This document shows, in pieces, positions 9,163 to 19,067 of a DNA stretch of 64,000 nucleotides. The notes below the pieces were generated by a model. The model saw only the letters and a list, made by a program, of their open reading frames with translations. It searched no databases and was not told where the DNA came from. Position numbers and translations under genes: made by a program. The DNA is taken from contig NZ_LMPS01000009.1 in assembly GCF_001424405.1 (NCBI RefSeq), forward strand, positions 62,001 to 126,000, written 5' to 3'. Source of the stretch: Dyadobacter sp. Leaf189. Lineage in GTDB: Bacteria > Bacteroidota > Bacteroidia > Cytophagales > Spirosomataceae. Position 1 is the stretch's first letter. Every line of letters starts with the position of its first letter.

Positions 9163-9708
9163 CTACAAAGTACTTACCTGGACAATCGCCTGGTTGTTGT
9201 CGCTGTTCACTTCTCCCCCTGCCCCGCCCACAATCACGGCTGTGATGTTTTGAGTGATATTGGCGGACTGGCCTGCATTTCTGGTGATTTTAAAACCAAC
9301 CACCGCCTTGCCGCCCTGCGCTATCTTGATGCCTGCCTTCGATGTAATAATTACAAAATTGGCATTTTCTGTAAAATCCCAGCTCGAATTTTGATTCGCT
9401 ACCCCTCCAAGTACATTCGAAGTGCCTGAGGTCAGTGGATAAGTGATCTTGAATGCAGAAATTTTACTGATGCGAAATGAAATCAATCCGGATGTTTCCA
9501 CATTGTTGATCTCATACATATTCAATACAAAGTCTCTCGATGCTGCCTCAGCGAATAATAAAGCATTGATATCGATCGTAGGTGTAAGGTCGGCTGCCGA
9601 GCTTCTTTTGATCCTGTTGCCCGCGGCATCATAGCCAAATGCGACTCCTTGTGAAAATGATGAACCAGAGAACACAAGACAGAGCGCCACTATAAATAGG
9701 TATTTCAT
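9163..9708 (-). CDS. Secreted protein with a single YD-repeat-like motif, function unknown
   Basis: Encodes 181 residues with a Sec signal peptide (MKYLFIVALCLVFSGSSFSQ). Directly after the cleavage site comes GVAFGYDAAGNRIKRS, which closely matches the YDxxGNR motif of RHS/YD repeats but occurs only once. The remaining 140 residues are Gly/Ser/Asn-rich and beta-like (DFVLNMYEINNVETSGLIS; GGKAVVGFKITRNAG), resembling cohesin- or Ig-like surface folds. No enzyme motif is seen. It lies divergent from, and about 500 bases away from, the large RHS gene. It may be a remnant or partner of an RHS protein, but the link rests only on the motif and position. Confidence 0.65.
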   Translation of the reverse strand: MKYLFIVALCLVFSGSSFSQGVAFGYDAAGNRIKRSSAADLTPTIDINALLFAEAASRDFVLNMYEINNVETSGLISFRISKISAFKITYPLTSGTSNVLGGVANQNSSWDFTENANFVIITSKAGIKIAQGGKAVVGFKITRNAGQSANITQNITAVIVGGAGGEVNSDNNQAIVQVSTL

Positions 9709-10224: not shown

Positions 10225-13200
10225 ATGAAGACAGTTTACCTCCTTTGCAACGTCCGGTCAGCCAATCGCCCTGCGAAAATCCATTGGCCAAAATGTCTTT
10301 CCCGAAAGATCCTCTGGCTTTTCACAGCCCTGTACAGCTTCAACTCTCTTGCACAAAATGTAACCTACCAGACCTTACACACCGGAGCTACTTTCAACGG
10401 CAGAACCATTAATCAAAATCTTCCCGTTGGAAGTATTTCCGAAAGTGCCGGCGTTGCATCCGGAGGTGCCACTTACTCGATATTACTAGCAATACCTCCC
10501 GGAACAAATGGTATTGCTCCGACTATATCCTTAAACTACTATTCCTTAGGAGGAAATGGCGTTTTAGGTCAGGGATGGAGCATTGGCGGCTTGTCAGAAA
10601 TTACCCGCAGCACGCGCAATAGCTATTTCGATAGTGAGGCAAATCCTATTGTAATGACAAACAGTGACAGGTTTGTTTTGGACGGTTCCCGGCTGATCGG
10701 CAAAGTGGGTAACTATGGAGACCCGAATACGACGTATGGTACCGAGTGTGAAAACTTTGCTACTATCATCTCCAAAAACACACAGGGAGACGGCCCGCAA
10801 TGGTTTGAAATTGTTACAAAGGATGGAATTAAGATGGAATACGGCAATTCGCCGGATTCCAGGCATACCGGCCAGAATGCAACTGTTTTGACGTGGGCTT
10901 TATCACGCATTACCTACCCTGATGAAAACTATATCTCGTTCAAGTACAAGGCAGTAAGTTTCGCCTTGCTTATCGAAGAGATCAACTACACGGGTAATGC
11001 CGCTCAATTATTAGACCCTTATAATCAGGTCAGATTCGACTACAAGATCCGGACCATTGATGAAAACGCAGGTTTTGAAAACGATACGCGCATAGAAAGC
11101 AAATACTTGCTGGATAAAGTCACCACCAAAACCAGTGGCGTCGTTGTCAAAACCTACCAGTTCAATTACGGTCATGACAACATCAATTCGTACCTGAAAG
11201 AGGTGACTGAATCGGGTGCAGACGGCAGTTCACTGAACGCCACTATTTTCAAATATGGAGATTCGCCAGCCGAATTTAGTACGGTAACGACAAGCGGGTA
11301 TGACAATCCATCCGCAACAACCATTACAGGTGATTTTAACGCCGATGGATTAACTGATTTCCTTGAAGCCAGCCTGATCCAGAACCCTCCTGCATATAGG
11401 ATCAAGGTCTATACCAAGTATCTGCCATACACAGCAAGTCCGAATGATTTTTATGTAGGAAATATCACAGACGCGCCTGTTACTTATTCGGTCGTTAAAA
11501 AACAGAGTATACCTAATTCATTTGATTTTCTTGCTTACGACTTCACGGGTGATGGTGCAGATGATGTTCTGATGACCAATATTGCCGGAGCGGGACAGGA
11601 TCGTACATTATCAAGTCTTCGCATTTACCGGACTCTTCAGAACTATGATTGGCAAAACAATGCACAGTTTGCCATCCAATTTGACCCGCTCACGATAGCT
11701 CCCTATACAGGCTATTCGAAGATTCACCCAAGTGGCCACTTCATTTTTCCAGGAGATTATGATGGGGATGGTGTGCAGGATATTCTTACCATGCTGGGAA
11801 GTAATGCCGTGAATTACAACTGTCACTTATACAATGGCAAAGTGCAACCCGATTTTGGGTCAATCGTAATCTCGGGGACGCATCTTTTTGAGACAACTGA
11901 TTGGGCTACTGCCGACAAGGTGCACGTCGTCGATTTCAATGGTGACGGCAAAAGCGATATTATGCTTATCAAGAGCATTCATTGCGAGATTTTTACTTTT
12001 GACGGGTGGACTGCGCGACGTATCCACTATTCTGTTAATTATTTAAGCAAAGATCACCTCAGCTATTTTGGTGATTTTAATGGCGACAGAAAGACTGACA
12101 TTCTTGCCAAACTAACCACTTCGGGCGCATGGAAGGTATTGATATCCAATGGGGTCGGCTTATATGAATCCCCTTTTACTTTCAATACCACACCTGATAC
12201 AGACCTTTACCTGGGAGACCAACTCGGTATTGCCGATTTAAATGGGGATGGCAAATCAGACATTTATCATGGCTGGCAACTGCCGGACCTGGAAACTGCG
12301 AATTTGGACGTCTACTACGGAAGAGGCTTTTCGGGCGCAGGAGCAGGCTTCCATCGCATCACCAGCACTTATGCCGTAAGATTAGGGGCACCACCACCGA
12401 TGATCGGTGATTTTAATGGGGATCGCAGAGCGGACATCATCAACTTCAAGAGCGTTTCAAACCCCATGGATGTTTTCAACTTCAAAAAAGAAGGACGCGA
12501 AAATATCCTTGAAAAGGTAAAGAATGGATACAATCATGTAACGGAATGGAGCTACAAAAAGCTGACGGATGAAAATGGCTTCCATATCCGGGGAAATCTT
12601 ACAGCGTATCCGTTAAACGCAATTCAGCCACCACTTTACGCCATTTCCGATTTCAAAATACAAGATGGAATTGGCGGCTTCAATACCACTCAATATACTT
12701 ACGAAGGCACAAAACTTCACCGGGCCGGAAAAGGGTTTATCGGGTTTGGTAAGATAACAGCGAACAACCTGACAACGGGTATCAAAACCGTTGTTGAAAA
12801 TGAATTTAATACAACCTATTACACGGCTGTCCCCTACCGGACTTCTACCTATCTGGCATCTACCAATGCATTGCTTGATCAAACGACCAATACCAATGTA
12901 TTTGTTTCTCCGGCAGCCAAACGGTTCTGGGTTCAGACCACCAATATTCTTGAAAACAAAGCATTTGAGGGCCGCACAACTACTACGGTAAATGTTTACG
13001 ACAATTACGGTAACATCAAGCAAAGTACGGTCAACAATGGAGTTGAAACCACTGTTACCAACACCATTTTTGGCGCTTATCCTGCGGGAGTTCTCAACAA
13101 GCCAACCTCTGTAACCGTTTCAAACACCCGGACAGGTCAGCCTGCGTATACGGTTTCAACAGGATACGGATATAACGGCATTGGTCAACTTACTACCAAA

Positions 13201-16194
13201 ACGGATTTTGTGGGACTTCCGAAAAGCGTAGTAACCACTTTCGAGTATTATCCCTTAGGTAACCTGAAAAAAACGACCATAAATCCATCCGGTCTTCCAG
13301 CAAGGTCAACCTCTTCTGTTTACGACACCAAAGGCCGCTATCCGGAAACCAAGACGAATGAGCTAAGCCAAACTTCATCTGCGACTTACGATTTTAAATG
13401 GGGAAAACCACTGACTATAACGGGAGTAGATGGTTTGATAACAACATTGGAATACGATGCTTTTGGCCGGGAGAAGAAAATCATATTGCCGGAAGGTTAT
13501 TCAATCACCCAAAATTATGGCTGGAATATTTCAGGTAACGCGGTCTGGTACCTGAACACCTCCCATCCGGGAAAGCCGGATGTAAAAACATTTTACGACC
13601 TGTTAAGAAGGGAAATCAAGAGCGAAACGGAAGGTTTTCAGGGACAAACCATTACTCAGGTTAAGACGTACGATAGTCGAGGCAATGTCGCCACAACGAC
13701 CGATCCGTATAAATCCGGTGAGCCGGTACTGACCACCACAACACAGTATGACACCTACAACCGGCCATTTAATATCAGCAACAACGGTCCTTTTGGCACT
13801 ACTACCATTGGCTACGTTTATGCAGCAGGAAAGCTGACCACAACCACCACTACGCCCTCGGGAGTTTCTTCGAAAGTAACGGATGCCAGCGGCCAGGTTA
13901 TCAGCGCTACGGACAATGGAGGCACATTGACCTACACTTATTACAGCCACGGCGGTCTCAAGGAAGTAAACAATGGCGCAGTGATTACAAGCAGCCAATA
14001 CGATGTGCAGGCCCGGCAAACTTCACTGACCGACCTCAATGCCGGTACAACCACTTACGATTACAATGCATTGGGGCAGCTGGCGAGCCAAACCAATGCA
14101 AACAACAAAACGCATACGATGCAATATGACCTGCTGGGCAGGAACACCAGCCGCATTGGCCCTGAGGGTTCAACGGTTTACGAATACTACCTCACAGGCA
14201 GCGGAGCGTCCACTAACCAGCTAAAAAAGGTAACCGGGTTTGCCGGCAATCTGGATGAGTATACTTACGATGCATTTGGAAGGTTGCAGACGGTAAAACA
14301 ATCCGTCGACGCCACTATTTACACGACTACTTACGGCTACAATCTTTACGGGGACATGACATCAGTGTTGTATCCGTCAGGCTTTGGAACTAATCATGCC
14401 TATGACGGCAATGGTTATCCGACCACTATTAAAAACAGCACCAATGCGGTGACGCTTTATACCAATAACGGGATGAATGGTCTGGGACAAAACACGGCGT
14501 ATGCGTTGGGTAACGGCAAATCCTCGGCAATTTCTTACAACTATGGGACACCTAAACTGTTCACAACAGCTGGTGTACAAAACCTGGAACTGACCTGGAA
14601 TTACGCAAAAGGCAATCTGGATAAACGGAAAGATTACATCAAGAATAAAGAAGAGAGCTTTACATATGATAACCTGAATCGGCTGCTGACGGCTACCGTT
14701 TTGGGCAAACCTGCGCAGGTAACATCCTATACAGCCTCAGGAAATATTACTGCAAAAAGTGATGCCGGACAGACATTCAATTATCACCCTGCAAAATTGA
14801 ATGCAGTTATTGGTGTTGTTTCGCCGACGACAGCGATTCCGGTACTAACTCAGGAAATTACATACACCCCATTCAACCAGCCTGAAAAAATTACGGAGAA
14901 CGGGTCGGGCCAGCCTTATGAGCTGACCTACACCTACGGCGCCGACTACCAGCGACTGAAAGGGGTCATGAAAAAGAACAATGCGCTGATCAACATGCAT
15001 TACTACTTTGGAAGCTACGAAAAGGATGTAACGCCAGGTATTGCCGATAAGCATCTGCATTACATTAGTTCACCGGCGGGGCTGATCGCTATTATTATTC
15101 GCGAGAACAATGCAGACCAGTATTACTACACTTACACCGATCACCTGGGATCGCTTTTGACTTTAACGGCTTTTAACGGGACAGTCATTCTCGAACAGAA
15201 CTTCGACGCCTGGGGCCGCCTCCGTCATCCAGCCAATTGGGATTATGCCAATGTCCCCGCCCCAACAAGCTACCTCTATCGTGGATTCACCGGTCATGAG
15301 CATTTAACAAATTTCAACCTGATCAACATGAACGGCCGGATGTATGATCCGGTGGTTGGGAGGGTGCTGAGTGTTGATAATTATGTGCAGAATTCGTATT
15401 CGACGCAGGGTTATAATCGGTATAGTTATGTGATGAATAATCCATTGAAGCATACGGATCCTACCGGAGAGTTATTCGGTACGATTATGACTTTTACAGG
15501 TCATTTGTTCGAAACAGCATTTTTGCACGGCGGCCTGGATCCTACAAGCAAAACAGCTAGAAACAATGCATGGCGCAATTTTGACCCCACAGCAACCGGT
15601 ACCTTAACAAACAATGCCTGGAAGATAGACATGGGGGCATTCAAGACAGATCCGAAACGCAATTTTTGGGGAAGAGCGGGCACCTTACTTTCCCGATTTA
15701 CTTGGGAGGCACCTCAATCGCTATTAGGGAATACGTACTCCCATGCAAGAAATGGGGCAAGAAAGGTAGACAATGTTGATTATTGGGGAGGAGCAACGTT
15801 GGTTAATGATAATTCAAATTCAGATAATCAATGGGGACTTACGCTGGGTTCTTACATAAATTCAGAGAATATGCAGATTGGGAGTGACATCTTCCGGCAT
15901 GAATATGGACATGTTTTACAGAGCAGACTAGTGGGTCCTTTGTACTTTGGGCATATTGGTGTTCCAAGCTTTGTTGGATCAATCGCTGAAAACTTCGGTT
16001 GGCACAGTCATAATGACGAATGGTACGAAATACAAGCCAACAGAATGTCATTTAAATACTTGCAAAAATACAGGACAAACGACCTACTTACCAGAGGTTG
16101 GGATGATCGTTCAGGTGAATATAAGAGAGAATATATTAGGGACTGGTATCTTCTTCTCTTTCCTCCAACATATCCATTTTGGTTTAACTTTTAA
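10225..16194 (+). CDS. SpvB/FG-GAP/RHS repeat protein with a C-terminal zincin (HEYGH) domain, candidate polymorphic toxin
   Basis: A 1989-residue secreted protein. A hydrophobic segment (LWLFTALYSFNSLAQ, about residues 30-44) serves as signal sequence. An SpvB-like domain follows (GTNGIAPTISLNYYSLGG, from residue 93). Seven FG-GAP/VCBS calcium-type motifs lie between about 368 and 739 (for example GDYDGDGVQD and VDFNGDGKSD). Many YD repeats then run to the RHS core (YTYTDHLGSLLTL near 1633; DPVVGRVLSVDNYVQ near 1708), ending at PTGE near 1749. The final 240 residues are a separate tip with a zincin motif HEYGH (His1892, Glu1893, His1896) and a downstream EWYEIQANR that could give the third ligand. 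This is the layout of TcB/TcC-like cocoon toxins. Small lipoproteins follow immediately. The tip looks AT-richer than the body. Confidence 0.88.
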   Translation: MKTVYLLCNVRSANRPAKIHWPKCLSRKILWLFTALYSFNSLAQNVTYQTLHTGATFNGRTINQNLPVGSISESAGVASGGATYSILLAIPPGTNGIAPTISLNYYSLGGNGVLGQGWSIGGLSEITRSTRNSYFDSEANPIVMTNSDRFVLDGSRLIGKVGNYGDPNTTYGTECENFATIISKNTQGDGPQWFEIVTKDGIKMEYGNSPDSRHTGQNATVLTWALSRITYPDENYISFKYKAVSFALLIEEINYTGNAAQLLDPYNQVRFDYKIRTIDENAGFENDTRIESKYLLDKVTTKTSGVVVKTYQFNYGHDNINSYLKEVTESGADGSSLNATIFKYGDSPAEFSTVTTSGYDNPSATTITGDFNADGLTDFLEASLIQNPPAYRIKVYTKYLPYTASPNDFYVGNITDAPVTYSVVKKQSIPNSFDFLAYDFTGDGADDVLMTNIAGAGQDRTLSSLRIYRTLQNYDWQNNAQFAIQFDPLTIAPYTGYSKIHPSGHFIFPGDYDGDGVQDILTMLGSNAVNYNCHLYNGKVQPDFGSIVISGTHLFETTDWATADKVHVVDFNGDGKSDIMLIKSIHCEIFTFDGWTARRIHYSVNYLSKDHLSYFGDFNGDRKTDILAKLTTSGAWKVLISNGVGLYESPFTFNTTPDTDLYLGDQLGIADLNGDGKSDIYHGWQLPDLETANLDVYYGRGFSGAGAGFHRITSTYAVRLGAPPPMIGDFNGDRRADIINFKSVSNPMDVFNFKKEGRENILEKVKNGYNHVTEWSYKKLTDENGFHIRGNLTAYPLNAIQPPLYAISDFKIQDGIGGFNTTQYTYEGTKLHRAGKGFIGFGKITANNLTTGIKTVVENEFNTTYYTAVPYRTSTYLASTNALLDQTTNTNVFVSPAAKRFWVQTTNILENKAFEGRTTTTVNVYDNYGNIKQSTVNNGVETTVTNTIFGAYPAGVLNKPTSVTVSNTRTGQPAYTVSTGYGYNGIGQLTTKTDFVGLPKSVVTTFEYYPLGNLKKTTINPSGLPARSTSSVYDTKGRYPETKTNELSQTSSATYDFKWGKPLTITGVDGLITTLEYDAFGREKKIILPEGYSITQNYGWNISGNAVWYLNTSHPGKPDVKTFYDLLRREIKSETEGFQGQTITQVKTYDSRGNVATTTDPYKSGEPVLTTTTQYDTYNRPFNISNNGPFGTTTIGYVYAAGKLTTTTTTPSGVSSKVTDASGQVISATDNGGTLTYTYYSHGGLKEVNNGAVITSSQYDVQARQTSLTDLNAGTTTYDYNALGQLASQTNANNKTHTMQYDLLGRNTSRIGPEGSTVYEYYLTGSGASTNQLKKVTGFAGNLDEYTYDAFGRLQTVKQSVDATIYTTTYGYNLYGDMTSVLYPSGFGTNHAYDGNGYPTTIKNSTNAVTLYTNNGMNGLGQNTAYALGNGKSSAISYNYGTPKLFTTAGVQNLELTWNYAKGNLDKRKDYIKNKEESFTYDNLNRLLTATVLGKPAQVTSYTASGNITAKSDAGQTFNYHPAKLNAVIGVVSPTTAIPVLTQEITYTPFNQPEKITENGSGQPYELTYTYGADYQRLKGVMKKNNALINMHYYFGSYEKDVTPGIADKHLHYISSPAGLIAIIIRENNADQYYYTYTDHLGSLLTLTAFNGTVILEQNFDAWGRLRHPANWDYANVPAPTSYLYRGFTGHEHLTNFNLINMNGRMYDPVVGRVLSVDNYVQNSYSTQGYNRYSYVMNNPLKHTDPTGELFGTIMTFTGHLFETAFLHGGLDPTSKTARNNAWRNFDPTATGTLTNNAWKIDMGAFKTDPKRNFWGRAGTLLSRFTWEAPQSLLGNTYSHARNGARKVDNVDYWGGATLVNDNSNSDNQWGLTLGSYINSENMQIGSDIFRHEYGHVLQSRLVGPLYFGHIGVPSFVGSIAENFGWHSHNDEWYEIQANRMSFKYLQKYRTNDLLTRGWDDRSGEYKREYIRDWYLLLFPPTYPFWFNF

Positions 16195-16198
16195 AACA

Positions 16199-16627
16199 AT
16201 GAAAGCAATGATCTCTAAATCATCTTTTTTCGCCTTGCTTCTTATACAGCTGTTTGCATTATCATGCGAGCATCCTCCTGGTGCAACGGTGAGGTACTTT
16301 TTTACAATACAAAACAACAGTTCAAGTCGCATACTATATTTTGTAAATAACGATTATCCAGATATCTCAATTCCCGATTCATTGTCAACAGAAGTTCGGC
16401 TTGTGACTCTAAGTTCTGAGGAAAATTTCAAATATGAGTCTTCGAAGAAATGGCCAAAATATTTTAATAGCCTTCCAGCAGACACTCTCAGTATCTTTTT
16501 TCTTTCCGCTGATACAGTTTCGAAATATGGTTGGAAACAAGTTCAGAGCAGATATCTGATATTGAATCGAAAAGATATAAGTCTTCAGGATTTAGAAGAT
16601 AACAAATATTTAATAACCTATCCATAA
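16199..16627 (+). CDS. Small lipoprotein, candidate immunity protein for the RHS tip
   Basis: Encodes 142 residues starting four bases after the RHS stop codon (ATG at 16199, with a second in-frame ATG at 16208). The signal peptide ends in a lipobox-like LFALSC, and CEHPPGATVRYFF follows. The C-terminus reads ISLQDLEDNKYLITYP. The same N-terminal (C-x-PPG-x-T ... QNxSS) and C-terminal (LxxxNxxITYP) patterns recur in the two broken copies immediately downstream, so this is the intact member of a three-copy family. Tight spacing behind the toxin and probable outer-membrane or periplasmic anchoring fit an immunity role against a periplasm-acting protease. That role is inference only, since no known immunity family is recognised. 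Confidence 0.65.
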   Translation: MKAMISKSSFFALLLIQLFALSCEHPPGATVRYFFTIQNNSSSRILYFVNNDYPDISIPDSLSTEVRLVTLSSEENFKYESSKKWPKYFNSLPADTLSIFFLSADTVSKYGWKQVQSRYLILNRKDISLQDLEDNKYLITYP

Positions 16628-16718
16628 TACCAACCTCGTTGTGATTAATGCCCATATCGGTTGGACTAATCAATGCTTTGAAATACAATAGATAACCAAT
16701 AAAGTGATATGAAGCTAA

Positions 16719-16949
16719 ACTTATTTTCTATGGTCAAAGCTAGATTTTGATGGATTTAGAACGTGTTGGGAAAACAGACTTGCCAACGGGAAGTCAGAAG
16801 AGATTTACTTTATTGATCCGAATCACTTTTATACTGAAGGTGGTTTTTATGATTGCGATTCCATTAATATAAAAAGTAAAGTATTGAAACTTCATAAGTT
16901 TAATTTAGACGATTTAAAGAAGAGCAATTTTGTTATTACTTATGAATAA
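16719..16949 (+). pseudogene. Remnant (C-terminal half) of a second lipoprotein copy
   Basis: An open frame of 76 codons without a start codon, closed upstream by TAA at 16716. Its translation includes EEIYFIDPNHFYTEGGFYD followed by CDSINIK, and ends LHKFNLDDLKKSNFVITYE. The end matches the ITYP-type terminus of the intact lipoprotein at 16199, and FYDC matches the copy that follows. The signal peptide and N-terminal half are missing. The stop codon overlaps the ATG of the next copy by 8 bases, a sign of former translational coupling. Confidence 0.6.
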
Positions 16950-17365
16950 TTGGACAATCATATTATTATTGGCATTGTCCTCATGCGATCCTCCTGGTGA
17001 TACTAGATTAATGTTTCAGAATGATTCGTCACATCCAATCATTTTCACCAAAGCACCAGATGAAGGCAAAGCTGGGGATCCTTACAGTTTTTATGATTGT
17101 TCGTCAAGCAAACTTGCACATACCTACCTCGTGGAAGGAGAAAAGGACGGTTATCCAACAAGTCCCGGTGAAATGGGAAACTCTTATTCCAAGGTACCCT
17201 AAGGGAAGGTTGTTATTCATTGTCTATCATGCTGACTCGGCCATCAGATACATAGATAAATATGGGTGCGACAGTCTCGGAAAGCGGCACGATCTGGTCC
17301 TAAAGCGTTTCGAAGTAACTGTGGATTATCTCAAGAAAAACAACTGGACGCTCACTTATCCATGA
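16942..17365 (+). pseudogene. Frameshifted third lipoprotein copy
   Basis: The ATG at 16942 opens MNNWTIILLLALSSCDPPGD, a lipoprotein signal whose C-DPPG-DT ... QNDSS pattern matches the intact copy (C-EHPPG-AT ... QNNSS). The frame ends at 17202 after KVP. The next frame (read from about 17160) continues the family as WETLIPRYPKGRLLFIVYH and ends VDYLKKNNWTLTYP at 17365. A single-base indel near 17160-17185 would explain both. A sequencing or assembly error is the alternative. If rejoined, the product would be about 140 residues. Confidence 0.65.
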
Positions 17366-17433: not shown

Positions 17434-18453
17434 ATGAAAGACATCCTCTTACTAATTGCACTATCCATCACTCATCTCACCCAAGCCCAGATCAACCTTA
17501 CAATCGACTACAATTGTAAAGATTCCACATCAGGTTTTTCAACTATTGAAGTGATAGACAACAGAGACGGCCAGAAACTATTAGGATATATTCATAAAGG
17601 GCTGGGAAACAATAGCAAACAAATCGTCTTCGAGGGAAGTATTGCGGATAGTCTAGCGATATTTTTTAAAGGTAAAAACGAAAGCATACGCAATCAAAAA
17701 ACATTGGTCTTCATTCTTAATGAGTTATTTATGAATGAAAATACCAGGGACATTCCTGAGAATGGAAAACTCAAACTTTCACTGCGTTTATTTCTTGAAG
17801 AGGATGTTGGTAAATATTCTGAAATACTTGCTGTTGACAGCATCTTCACAGTAAAAGGGTTTGATGTTACAAAAAAGCTGTTTCGATCGGTGAGCGAGGA
17901 ATTTTGTGCCATTGCAAAAGATGCTGCTGAAAGCAAGCTCAACGAGGACAAACCCACATTCACCAGAGACGAGCTAAATGATCTGGATAGTCTGGAAATA
18001 AGCCGCATTCCAATATTTTCTAATCAAGTACCCAATTCAGGGATATTTAAAGACTATGCACACTTTGCCCAGAATAATCCCGATATCAATGCAAGAATAA
18101 TGATTGAAAAATCGAAGAAGGGAAAAGTAACAGCCTATCGCTATTATGGAACAAGAAAGAAAGGTGTACAATTGGAACCTACTGGTCTTTACGCAATATC
18201 AGATGGCATTAATTTGTACAAAGCCACTTCCGCAGGCTTTTTCGAAATTAAAAATGTTAATCAACGGCTTTATTATGATCGGCCGGGATCTTTCACAGAT
18301 GCTAACAGCGGCGCCATGTGGGGCGCGTACTTTGGACTTGCCGGTTCGATTGTCGCCAGCTCCATATCTGCATCAGGCAACAAAAACTATCTCTTTCGAT
18401 TTAAAATTAATCACCGCCGAGGTAATTCAATTCCAATTGGTCTTGCAGAATAG
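17434..18453 (+). CDS. Secreted protein of unknown function in the RHS island
   Basis: The ATG at 17434 gives MKDILLLIALSITHLTQAQ, a Sec signal peptide; a TTG ten codons upstream is less likely. The mature part is about 320 residues. It includes an acidic, lysine-rich middle (FTRDELNDLDSLEISRIPIF) and a C-terminal glycine-rich hydrophobic stretch (GAMWGAYFGLAGSIVASSIS, near residues 305-325) that may insert in a membrane. No domain or catalytic motif is recognised. Its order after the lipoprotein copies and before the CHU_C gene suggests it belongs to the same accessory island. The sequence is AT-rich like the lipoproteins. Confidence 0.7.
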   Translation: MKDILLLIALSITHLTQAQINLTIDYNCKDSTSGFSTIEVIDNRDGQKLLGYIHKGLGNNSKQIVFEGSIADSLAIFFKGKNESIRNQKTLVFILNELFMNENTRDIPENGKLKLSLRLFLEEDVGKYSEILAVDSIFTVKGFDVTKKLFRSVSEEFCAIAKDAAESKLNEDKPTFTRDELNDLDSLEISRIPIFSNQVPNSGIFKDYAHFAQNNPDINARIMIEKSKKGKVTAYRYYGTRKKGVQLEPTGLYAISDGINLYKATSAGFFEIKNVNQRLYYDRPGSFTDANSGAMWGAYFGLAGSIVASSISASGNKNYLFRFKINHRRGNSIPIGLAE

Positions 18454-18509: not shown

Positions 18510-19067
18510 ATGAAAAACACACTTACCATATTTCTTCTCCTCCTCATTTGCACCGCACAAACCTGTTCCTCCCAGGATCAGCCAAAACCTGTCAGCTCGG
18601 AATATGAATCCTGTTGCGGCACTCAGGCTGTTGAGTTTTCTTATGACAAAAAGCGCATTTATGTACCCAATGTTTTTACGCCGAACAAGGATGGTGTGAA
18701 TGACTATTTCCTGCCTTTTGTAAATGATATCGTGACCGACATTTGGGGATTTACCATATACAGTGCCGTCGGTGACACTATATTGTATCAAAAGCCTTAT
18801 TGTAATTCCAAAATGGCGATCGCTGATTATGGCTGGGATGGACTTAGACCGGATGGATCCAGGTACAAGGGATTGTTCAGGTATAAAATGCGGGTAGATG
18901 ACAGCGAAGCGAGGAAACACATCGTGGGAGGACAGGCGTGCGCCATTATTTGTGGAAGTGAGTCAGAGATATTCAAAACAAAAGCCGGATGCTACTACCC
19001 CATTCAGGCGGGTAAAGCGGGTACAGTGGATAAATCAATTGCCTCTGCGGAGAAGGATTGCTTCTGA
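18510..19067 (+). CDS. Short gliding-motility-type C-terminal (CHU_C) domain protein
   Basis: Encodes 185 residues with a signal peptide (MKNTLTIFLLLLICTAQTCS). The core YVPNVFTPNKDGVNDYFLPF, then GFTIYSAVGD and GWDGLRPDGSRYKGLFRYKM, matches the gliding motility-associated C-terminal domain usually found at the end of large type IX-secreted adhesins. Here it is nearly the whole protein and is followed by about 45 extra cysteine-containing residues, so it is not a normal C-terminal sorting signal. It may be a free-standing fold or a truncated adhesin. It is the last gene of the plus-strand run behind the RHS toxin. Confidence 0.72.
   Translation: MKNTLTIFLLLLICTAQTCSSQDQPKPVSSEYESCCGTQAVEFSYDKKRIYVPNVFTPNKDGVNDYFLPFVNDIVTDIWGFTIYSAVGDTILYQKPYCNSKMAIADYGWDGLRPDGSRYKGLFRYKMRVDDSEARKHIVGGQACAIICGSESEIFKTKAGCYYPIQAGKAGTVDKSIASAEKDCF

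What the first reader, a model, noticed from the sequence alone, without database searches (positions are those of the whole stretch)
16199..17365. Three-copy lipoprotein family decaying behind the RHS toxin
The intact gene (16199-16627), a start-less fragment (16719-16949) and a frameshifted copy (16942-17365) share a lipobox followed by C-x-PPG-x-T ... QN-x-SS and a C-terminal ITYP-type ending (NKYLITYP, SNFVITYE, NNWTLTYP). They lie directly after the toxin tip. Tandem orphan immunity genes downstream of RHS tips are known in polymorphic toxin systems; lipoprotein immunity would fit a toxin acting in the periplasm. This looks like an immunity graveyard from earlier tip exchanges.
Basis: partly seen in the sequence, partly recalled or inferred. 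Interest (0 to 1): 0.78.

Follow-up and report, generated by a model that had tools for sequence, protein, structure and literature searches.

The report
Layered immunity-gene fossils behind RHS toxin
Behind a bacterial weapon gene lie one working and two broken lipoprotein genes, each matching the gene behind a different version of the weapon's tip in sister species, plus a scrap of an earlier tip, so the spot appears to record past weapon swaps.

Summary
The window is from Dyadobacter. The intact lipoprotein, the fragment and the frameshifted copy are homologous but belong to three subfamilies. Each is closest to the lipoprotein directly behind a different HEYGH tip at the syntenic locus of a sister species (G027 = D. 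soli; G012/G043; G004). Between copy 1 and the fragment lie the last 10 codons of a G012-type tip and the start of a G012-type lipoprotein (0 of 1000 shuffles as high). So the site holds strata of displaced tip-immunity cassettes, not a tandem duplication.

The pairing is wide: 68 of 79 HEYGH tips, nearly all from Bacteroidota by record title, are directly followed by this family, some in serial tip-lipoprotein cassettes. Of 25 fetched Dyadobacter RHS ends of other kinds, none is. Neither protein has a Pfam or NCBIfam family of its own.

Against a simple reading: in a class-wide sample 16 of 20 lipoprotein-bearing genomes show no tip, so solitary members are common and their role is open. The frameshift is recent or an assembly error. 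Protease activity and protection are inferred.

Known kind (orphan immunity array behind a polymorphic toxin); new toxin-immunity family.

The parts
10225..16194 (+). RHS protein, 1989 aa: SpvB and FG-GAP regions, RHS/YD repeats, RHS-associated core; N-terminal hydrophobic stretch that reads like an export signal
   Evidence: Pfam and NCBIfam matches; export signal read by eye (sequence printed)
15466..16194 (+). C-terminal tip with HEYGH and a conserved later Glu, putative zinc metallopeptidase toxin
   Evidence: HEYGH, E188 and A191 invariant in 64 aligned tips (HEYGH partly by construction of the scan); no Pfam, NCBIfam or PDB match
16199..16627 (+). copy 1: intact lipoprotein, putative cognate immunity gene of the present tip
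   Evidence: G027 lipoproteins 59 and 54% identical, behind a tip 69% identical
16663..16695 (+). scar: last 10 codons and stop of a displaced G012/G043-type tip (GLINALKYNR-stop)
   Evidence: alignment of 16662-16731 to G012 score 80 and G043 score 72, 0 of 1000 shuffles each
16709..16731 (+). start remnant of a G012/G043 first-lipoprotein gene
   Evidence: same alignment; N-terminal test score 67, 0 of 500 shuffles
16734..16949 (+). fragment 2: C-terminal half of a G012/G043 second-lipoprotein gene
   Evidence: 79% and 70% identity over 71 aa
16942..17365 (+). copy 3: frameshifted lipoprotein of the G004 type, break between about 17165 and 17185
   Evidence: 67% and 72% identity of its two parts to the whole G004 gene
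17434..18453 (+). 339-aa exported-looking protein, conserved 3' border of the array
   Evidence: matches in 4 of 7 syntenic stretches (L160, L162, L163, L164); no family above its curated cut-off

Best explanation
The locus is a polymorphic RHS toxin with its immunity gene and the fossils of earlier immunity genes. The tip is most likely a zinc metallopeptidase acting in the cell envelope. Copy 1 is its cognate immunity protein: exported, lipid-anchored in the producer's own envelope, where it binds and blocks the tip. The fragment and copy 3 are immunity genes of two other tip types, lost when a new tip-immunity cassette recombined onto the conserved RHS core; the old genes stayed downstream and are now breaking. 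Shown here: homology, subfamily assignment, the scrap of the old tip, synteny, wide tip-lipoprotein linkage and co-divergence. Inferred: protease activity, place of action, neutralisation by binding, and the order of events.
For: Three copies match lipoproteins behind three different tips of sister species. Tip scar. 68 of 79 tips directly followed by the family in cross-validation. Control: 0 of 25 other Dyadobacter RHS ends. Nearest relatives agree for tip and lipoprotein across genera: G004-type to L142, G012-type to L116 and L144, window type to L081 and L083. Tip-lipoprotein distance r 0.405 in 44 pairs (0 of 2000 permutations); partial r 0.266 given the RHS core in 32 pairs (1 of 2000), core-lipoprotein r 0.044. 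Serial tip-lipoprotein cassettes in L113 and L135.
Against: 16 of 20 lipoprotein-bearing genomes in the class sample show no tip. G490 has a distant HEYGH tip in an RHS-length frame with no family member behind it. The correlation is weak among distant tips (r 0.189, and 0.098 in the smaller set). Lipoproteins of other kinds follow other RHS tips in this genus too (9 of 26 by rule), so a lipoprotein as such is not special. The tip has no fold match, so protease activity rests on its motif. No assay.
Confidence: 0.82

Rival explanations
1. The family is a general Bacteroidota envelope lipoprotein, for example an inhibitor of the cell's own proteases or an accessory of RHS export or anchoring, that became linked to RHS genes and is not immunity.
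For: Many solitary members, some beside unrelated genes and kept in one place in several species of one genus (g86); 16 of 20 lipoprotein genomes lack the tip.
Against: Linkage is to one tip kind and not to the RHS core; copies differ with the tip; solitary rows fall in several places of the tree, at least 4 changes forced (poorly resolved).
Confidence: 0.12
2. The three copies arose by tandem duplication in place and then diverged.
For: They are adjacent and homologous.
Against: Each is far closer to a lipoprotein in another species than to its neighbours, their types lie apart in the tree, and a foreign tip scar lies between them.
Confidence: 0.03
3. Copy 3 is an intact gene and its frameshift an assembly error.
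For: A single break; both sides conserved against G004 (changing differences 0.21 and 0.12, silent 0.57 and 0.96); the G004 gene is whole.
Against: The neighbouring fragment lacks half its gene, so decay at this site is real; broken family copies also occur in G017, G031 and G043. No reads were available.
Confidence: 0.25

Closest known systems
VgrG2b C-terminal metallopeptidase and PA0261, Tpe-Tpi family (Wood et al. 2019, PMC6899460, passages read)
   Same: HExxH metallopeptidase acting in the periplasm; immunity protein exported to the envelope, in some relatives a predicted or fractionated lipoprotein; the immunity protein binds the toxin
   Different: Delivered by a type VI system on VgrG; homology to the tip or lipoprotein here was not tested pairwise; analogy of mechanism only
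Vibrio cholerae T6SS immunity gene arrays (Kirchberger et al. 2017, PMC5361080, abstract read)
   Same: Old immunity genes retained downstream when a new effector-immunity pair displaces the effector
   Different: Different toxins and delivery; here RHS tips, with a tip scar and broken copies
Serratia Rhs1 NADase tips with orphan immunity (Hagan et al. 2023, PMC10539506, abstract and outline read)
   Same: Exchangeable RHS tips; an orphan immunity protein at the RHS locus protects against another strain's tip
   Different: NADase tips, T6SS delivery, unrelated immunity proteins
Tox-MPTase1-5 of polymorphic toxins (Zhang et al. 2012, PMC3482391, passages read)
   Same: Zincin-like HExxH tips behind RHS repeats, some in Bacteroidetes
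   Different: The table shows '-' for all five, which I read as no immunity protein listed; it calls Imm65 (with Tox-JAB-1) its only apparent lipoprotein immunity. No Tox-MPTase Pfam model matched the 64 tips at E 0.1
TANFOR toxins with BaCT-BaCTic (PMC7073777, passages read)
   Same: Polymorphic toxin of the same phylum with a diverse cognate immunity family directly downstream
   Different: TANFOR N-terminus and DNase tip; the text holds neither 'lipoprotein' nor 'metallopeptidase'

Membership tests
RHS polymorphic toxin with cognate immunity gene | Conserved RHS core joined to variable C-terminal tips | tested here: met
   30 fetched RHS ends of the genus carry HEYGH and other tips; core pieces about 70-92% identical at the syntenic locus
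RHS polymorphic toxin with cognate immunity gene | A specific small gene directly behind each tip type, moving with the tip | tested here: met
   68 of 79 tips, 0 of 25 other tips, co-divergence
RHS polymorphic toxin with cognate immunity gene | Tip is toxic and the gene protects | not testable with these tools
   needs an assay
Orphan immunity array left by tip displacement | Downstream genes match immunity genes of other tips in relatives; remains of old tips may persist | tested here: met
   broken core, tip and lipoprotein pieces in G017, broken core and tip pieces in G033
Tox-MPTase1-5 | Match to their family models | tested here: not met
   no Tox-MPTase model among Pfam matches of 64 tips at E 0.1; I did not check which of the five have a Pfam model
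Zincin metallopeptidase | HExxH and a downstream Glu | tested here: met
   invariant in 64 tips, HEYGH partly by construction of the scan
Zincin metallopeptidase | Zincin fold | tested here: inconclusive
   model pLDDT 86.9, no PDB match below E 4; two of the weakest are zincins by my recall (PprI, deuterolysin)
Tpe-Tpi (VgrG2b-PA0261) | Sequence homology to VgrG2b C-terminus or PA0261 | not tested
   not compared
Bacterial lipoprotein | Signal with lipobox Cys | tested here: met
   copies 1 and 3; 59 of 79 first downstream genes by a strict rule

The most novel reading that the evidence does not exclude
The lipoproteins are a phylum-wide envelope shield against RHS metallopeptidase tips. Many Bacteroidota that lack the toxin keep a solitary member as defence against neighbours, captured repeatedly from displaced cassettes like those fossilised in this window.
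Probability: 0.35. Interest if true: 0.68.

Novelty: new member of a known kind. Interest (0 to 1): 0.57.

Why it matters
It pairs an unannotated lipoprotein immunity family with an unannotated RHS metallopeptidase tip across Bacteroidota, where the 2012 catalogue of polymorphic toxins shows no immunity protein for its five Tox-MPTase families (passages read). One 1.2 kb stretch shows stages of tip exchange: the new pair, a scrap of the old tip, old immunity genes breaking. Intact pairs in sister species make it directly testable whether orphan immunity genes protect.

Tried and rejected
Tandem duplication in place was rejected. Pfam and NCBIfam gave scattered weak matches only, the best being BSAP-5i immunity (E 9e-4, 2 of 61 lipoproteins), TsiR (E 0.016, 2 of 61), 2B_soluble (E 7e-4, 1 of 61) and PG_binding_1 (E 2e-4, 1 of 64 tips); not followed further. 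The lipoprotein model gave no PDB match below E 0.018, only partial beta-sandwich matches, and one viral match at E 4.4e-4 with TM 0.35, which I do not trust. Profiles against solved-structure sequences gave 12 weak matches (best E 0.08) and none. The first genome-contig scan, with copy 1 alone, found nothing. The idea that 16628-16733 holds the lost half of the second G012-type lipoprotein failed (62 and 51 of 500 shuffles as high); the tip end and the first lipoprotein fitted instead. Literature searches (open PMC papers only). 'HEYGH' hit one unrelated 1816 text; 'immunity lipoprotein' with Rhs two papers (one of them Wood 2019); Dyadobacter with Rhs and toxin one paper, by its abstract on a Photorhabdus injection system. 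I saw no report of this pair in these listings.

Correction to the notebook: the entry says 68 of 76 tips; the right figures are 68 of 79 loci, or 67 of 76 with at least 400 bases after the tip.

Full report
OBSERVATION. Coordinates and frames are right. A profile from 60 relatives, none from the window, matches all four pieces of the three copies at E 6e-33 to 9e-7. The intact copy starts 4 bases after the RHS stop; the fragment and copy 3 overlap by 8 bases.

WHERE IT IS. G027 contig C22 has the length (368504) of the Dyadobacter soli contig, and G012 contig C76 the length (11479) of a D. fermentans contig there; both genomes are of the window's genus. So the window is Dyadobacter. 48 genomes of the genus are held, the window's own included.

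THREE COPIES, THREE PARTNERS. The tip matches in 5 of 48 genomes at E 0.001; a profile also finds a broken tip with stops in G033. In each of the five the RHS gene is followed at once by one or two family lipoproteins. G027: tip 69% identical, two lipoproteins 59% and 54% like copy 1. G012 and G043: tips 40% identical; two overlapping lipoproteins each, the second 79% and 70% like the fragment; in G043 the first is split over two frames. G004: tip 34% identical, one lipoprotein 67% and 72% like the two parts of copy 3. The locus is syntenic: RHS core pieces about 70-92% identical, and the gene 17434-18453 or the gene 18510-19067 reappears behind the array in 6 of 7 stretches (not in G017, whose contig ends soon after).

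SCAR OF A LOST TIP. Window 16662-16731 aligns to the junction of tip end and first lipoprotein of G012 with score 80 (0 of 1000 shuffles, highest 32) and of G043 with score 72 (0 of 1000, highest 42). It reads GLINALKYNR-stop against GLINAWRYNR-stop, then the start of the first lipoprotein. The fragment continues as the second lipoprotein's C-terminal half. One deletion from inside the first gene into the second would explain this (inference).

OTHER FOSSILS IN THE GENUS. G031 has an RHS with another tip and, about 2.5 kb beyond its core, two lipoproteins run together in one frame. G017 and G033 have an RHS with other tips followed by broken pieces of core and tip, in G017 with lipoprotein pieces as well. 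G027 carries, after its two copies, the start of a G012-type lipoprotein.

DECAY IS YOUNG. Copy 3 against G004: changing differences 0.21 (75 codons before the break) and 0.12 (59 after), silent 0.57 and 0.96. Fragment (71 codons) against G012 0.13 and 1.05, against G043 0.17 and 0.93. The proteins were under selection until recently, or copy 3 is whole and the break an assembly error.

WIDE PAIRING. The scan pattern held HEYGH, so that motif is partly by construction. A strict lipobox rule found a lipoprotein behind 59 of 79 tips. In 5-fold cross-validation a family profile matched directly behind 68 of 79. Of the 11 misses one tip ran off its contig and one had 121 bases left; with at least 400 bases after the tip it is 67 of 76. 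Five of the misses (L093, L120, L123, L141, L152) hold a match further on; L110, L151 and L156 hold none at E 1e-3. Close relatives in different folds (for example L082/L083) raise the figure. With a profile that includes these sequences, 66 loci with at least 2 kb downstream have one copy (46), two to five (18) or none (2). Of 120 family matches in the 79 loci, 86 have a tip end within 400 bases upstream; L113 and L135 are rows of tip-lipoprotein cassettes.

CONTROLS. One search found 34 RHS ends in the genus; 30 became new loci and were examined, with 402 to 1200 bases behind the tip. The profile matches behind all 4 with HEYGH (in the window the match counted is the fragment, as copy 1 fell outside the script's rule), weakly behind one with HEFGH (L185, E 9e-4), and behind none of the other 25 (best E 0.1). 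Lipoproteins of other kinds do follow some: 9 of the 26 by the lipobox rule. So a lipoprotein behind an RHS tip is not special in this genus; this family is. Distances: tip-lipoprotein r 0.405 for 44 pairs (0 of 2000), 0.189 for tip distances above 0.35. For the 32 pairs with enough core: tip-lipoprotein r 0.269 (5 of 2000; 0.098 above 0.35), partial r given core 0.266 (1 of 2000), core-lipoprotein 0.044 (647 of 2000). Pairs whose core border could not be cut by rule were dropped. A first run of this test failed in the script.

RESULTS AGAINST A SIMPLE STORY. In 395 genomes of the class 20 have a lipoprotein match at E 1e-6. Three (G000, G245, G569) have it beside a tip; G245 and G569 are the same DNA as loci L100 and L101 of the scan, so they are not independent. 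Of the 20, 16 have no tip at E 1e-3; G469 has one elsewhere, with a weak family match behind it (E 0.006). Neighbours of solitary copies look like TypA, NAPRTase, Lon and formimidoylglutamase (names by eye and recall). Conversely 15 of the 395 have a tip match at E 1e-10. Of the 8 best, G000, G245 and G569 have the family directly behind, G311 (same DNA as L156) and G469 weakly (E 0.05 and 0.006), G523, G279 and G602 not; the last two look like membrane proteins, not RHS. Of the other 7, none shows a family match; G490 is an RHS-length frame with HEYGH. The lipoprotein tree (77 rows, poorly resolved, bootstrap not settled) needs 8 label changes for 16 solitary rows, at least 4 forced.

STRUCTURE. 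The lipoprotein model is confident (pLDDT 93.2, pTM 0.79) but has no convincing relative. The tip model (86.9) has none. The protease reading rests on the motif.

MECHANISM. The RHS protein seems to carry an export signal (by eye), so its tip would pass the producer's envelope; a lipid-anchored inhibitor there would guard against an envelope protease. VgrG2b and PA0261 work in this way (PMC6899460, passages). Binding is inferred.

VERDICT. An orphan-immunity array of a known kind, unusually legible, with a toxin-immunity family not covered by Pfam or NCBIfam.

Noticed in passing
L190 2824-3111 (G000:C8), L177 2817-3095, L050 548-877 minus, L054 641-923, L004 2600-2866: A second small protein family (about 97 aa, no export signal by eye) stands directly behind other RHS tips in G000 and G017 and recurs as a likely orphan in the G004 and G033 arrays (58-64% identity) and distantly in G027 (27%, E 5e-8).
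   Followed up: partly
window 9163-9708 minus: Small protein whose N-terminus reads like an RHS/YD protein start (VAFGYDAAGNRIKR), no Pfam family; a homologue lies near the RHS locus in G033 (57%) and a weak one in G031.
   Followed up: no
L168, L188, L191, L193: Other Dyadobacter RHS tips are followed by a different lipoprotein type that overlaps the RHS stop by 13 bases and often starts MGK.
   Followed up: no
L249 1426-1905: The front part of the tip occurs without HEYGH, followed by another ending and a different lipoprotein, as if a shared pre-toxin part carried another toxin.
   Followed up: no
L247, L248: HEYGH relatives of 254-257 aa with hydrophobic stretches outside RHS genes and without the lipoprotein family nearby: possible resident membrane peptidases.
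   Followed up: no
L100 and L157: Five family lipoproteins in a row behind one HEYGH tip.
   Followed up: partly
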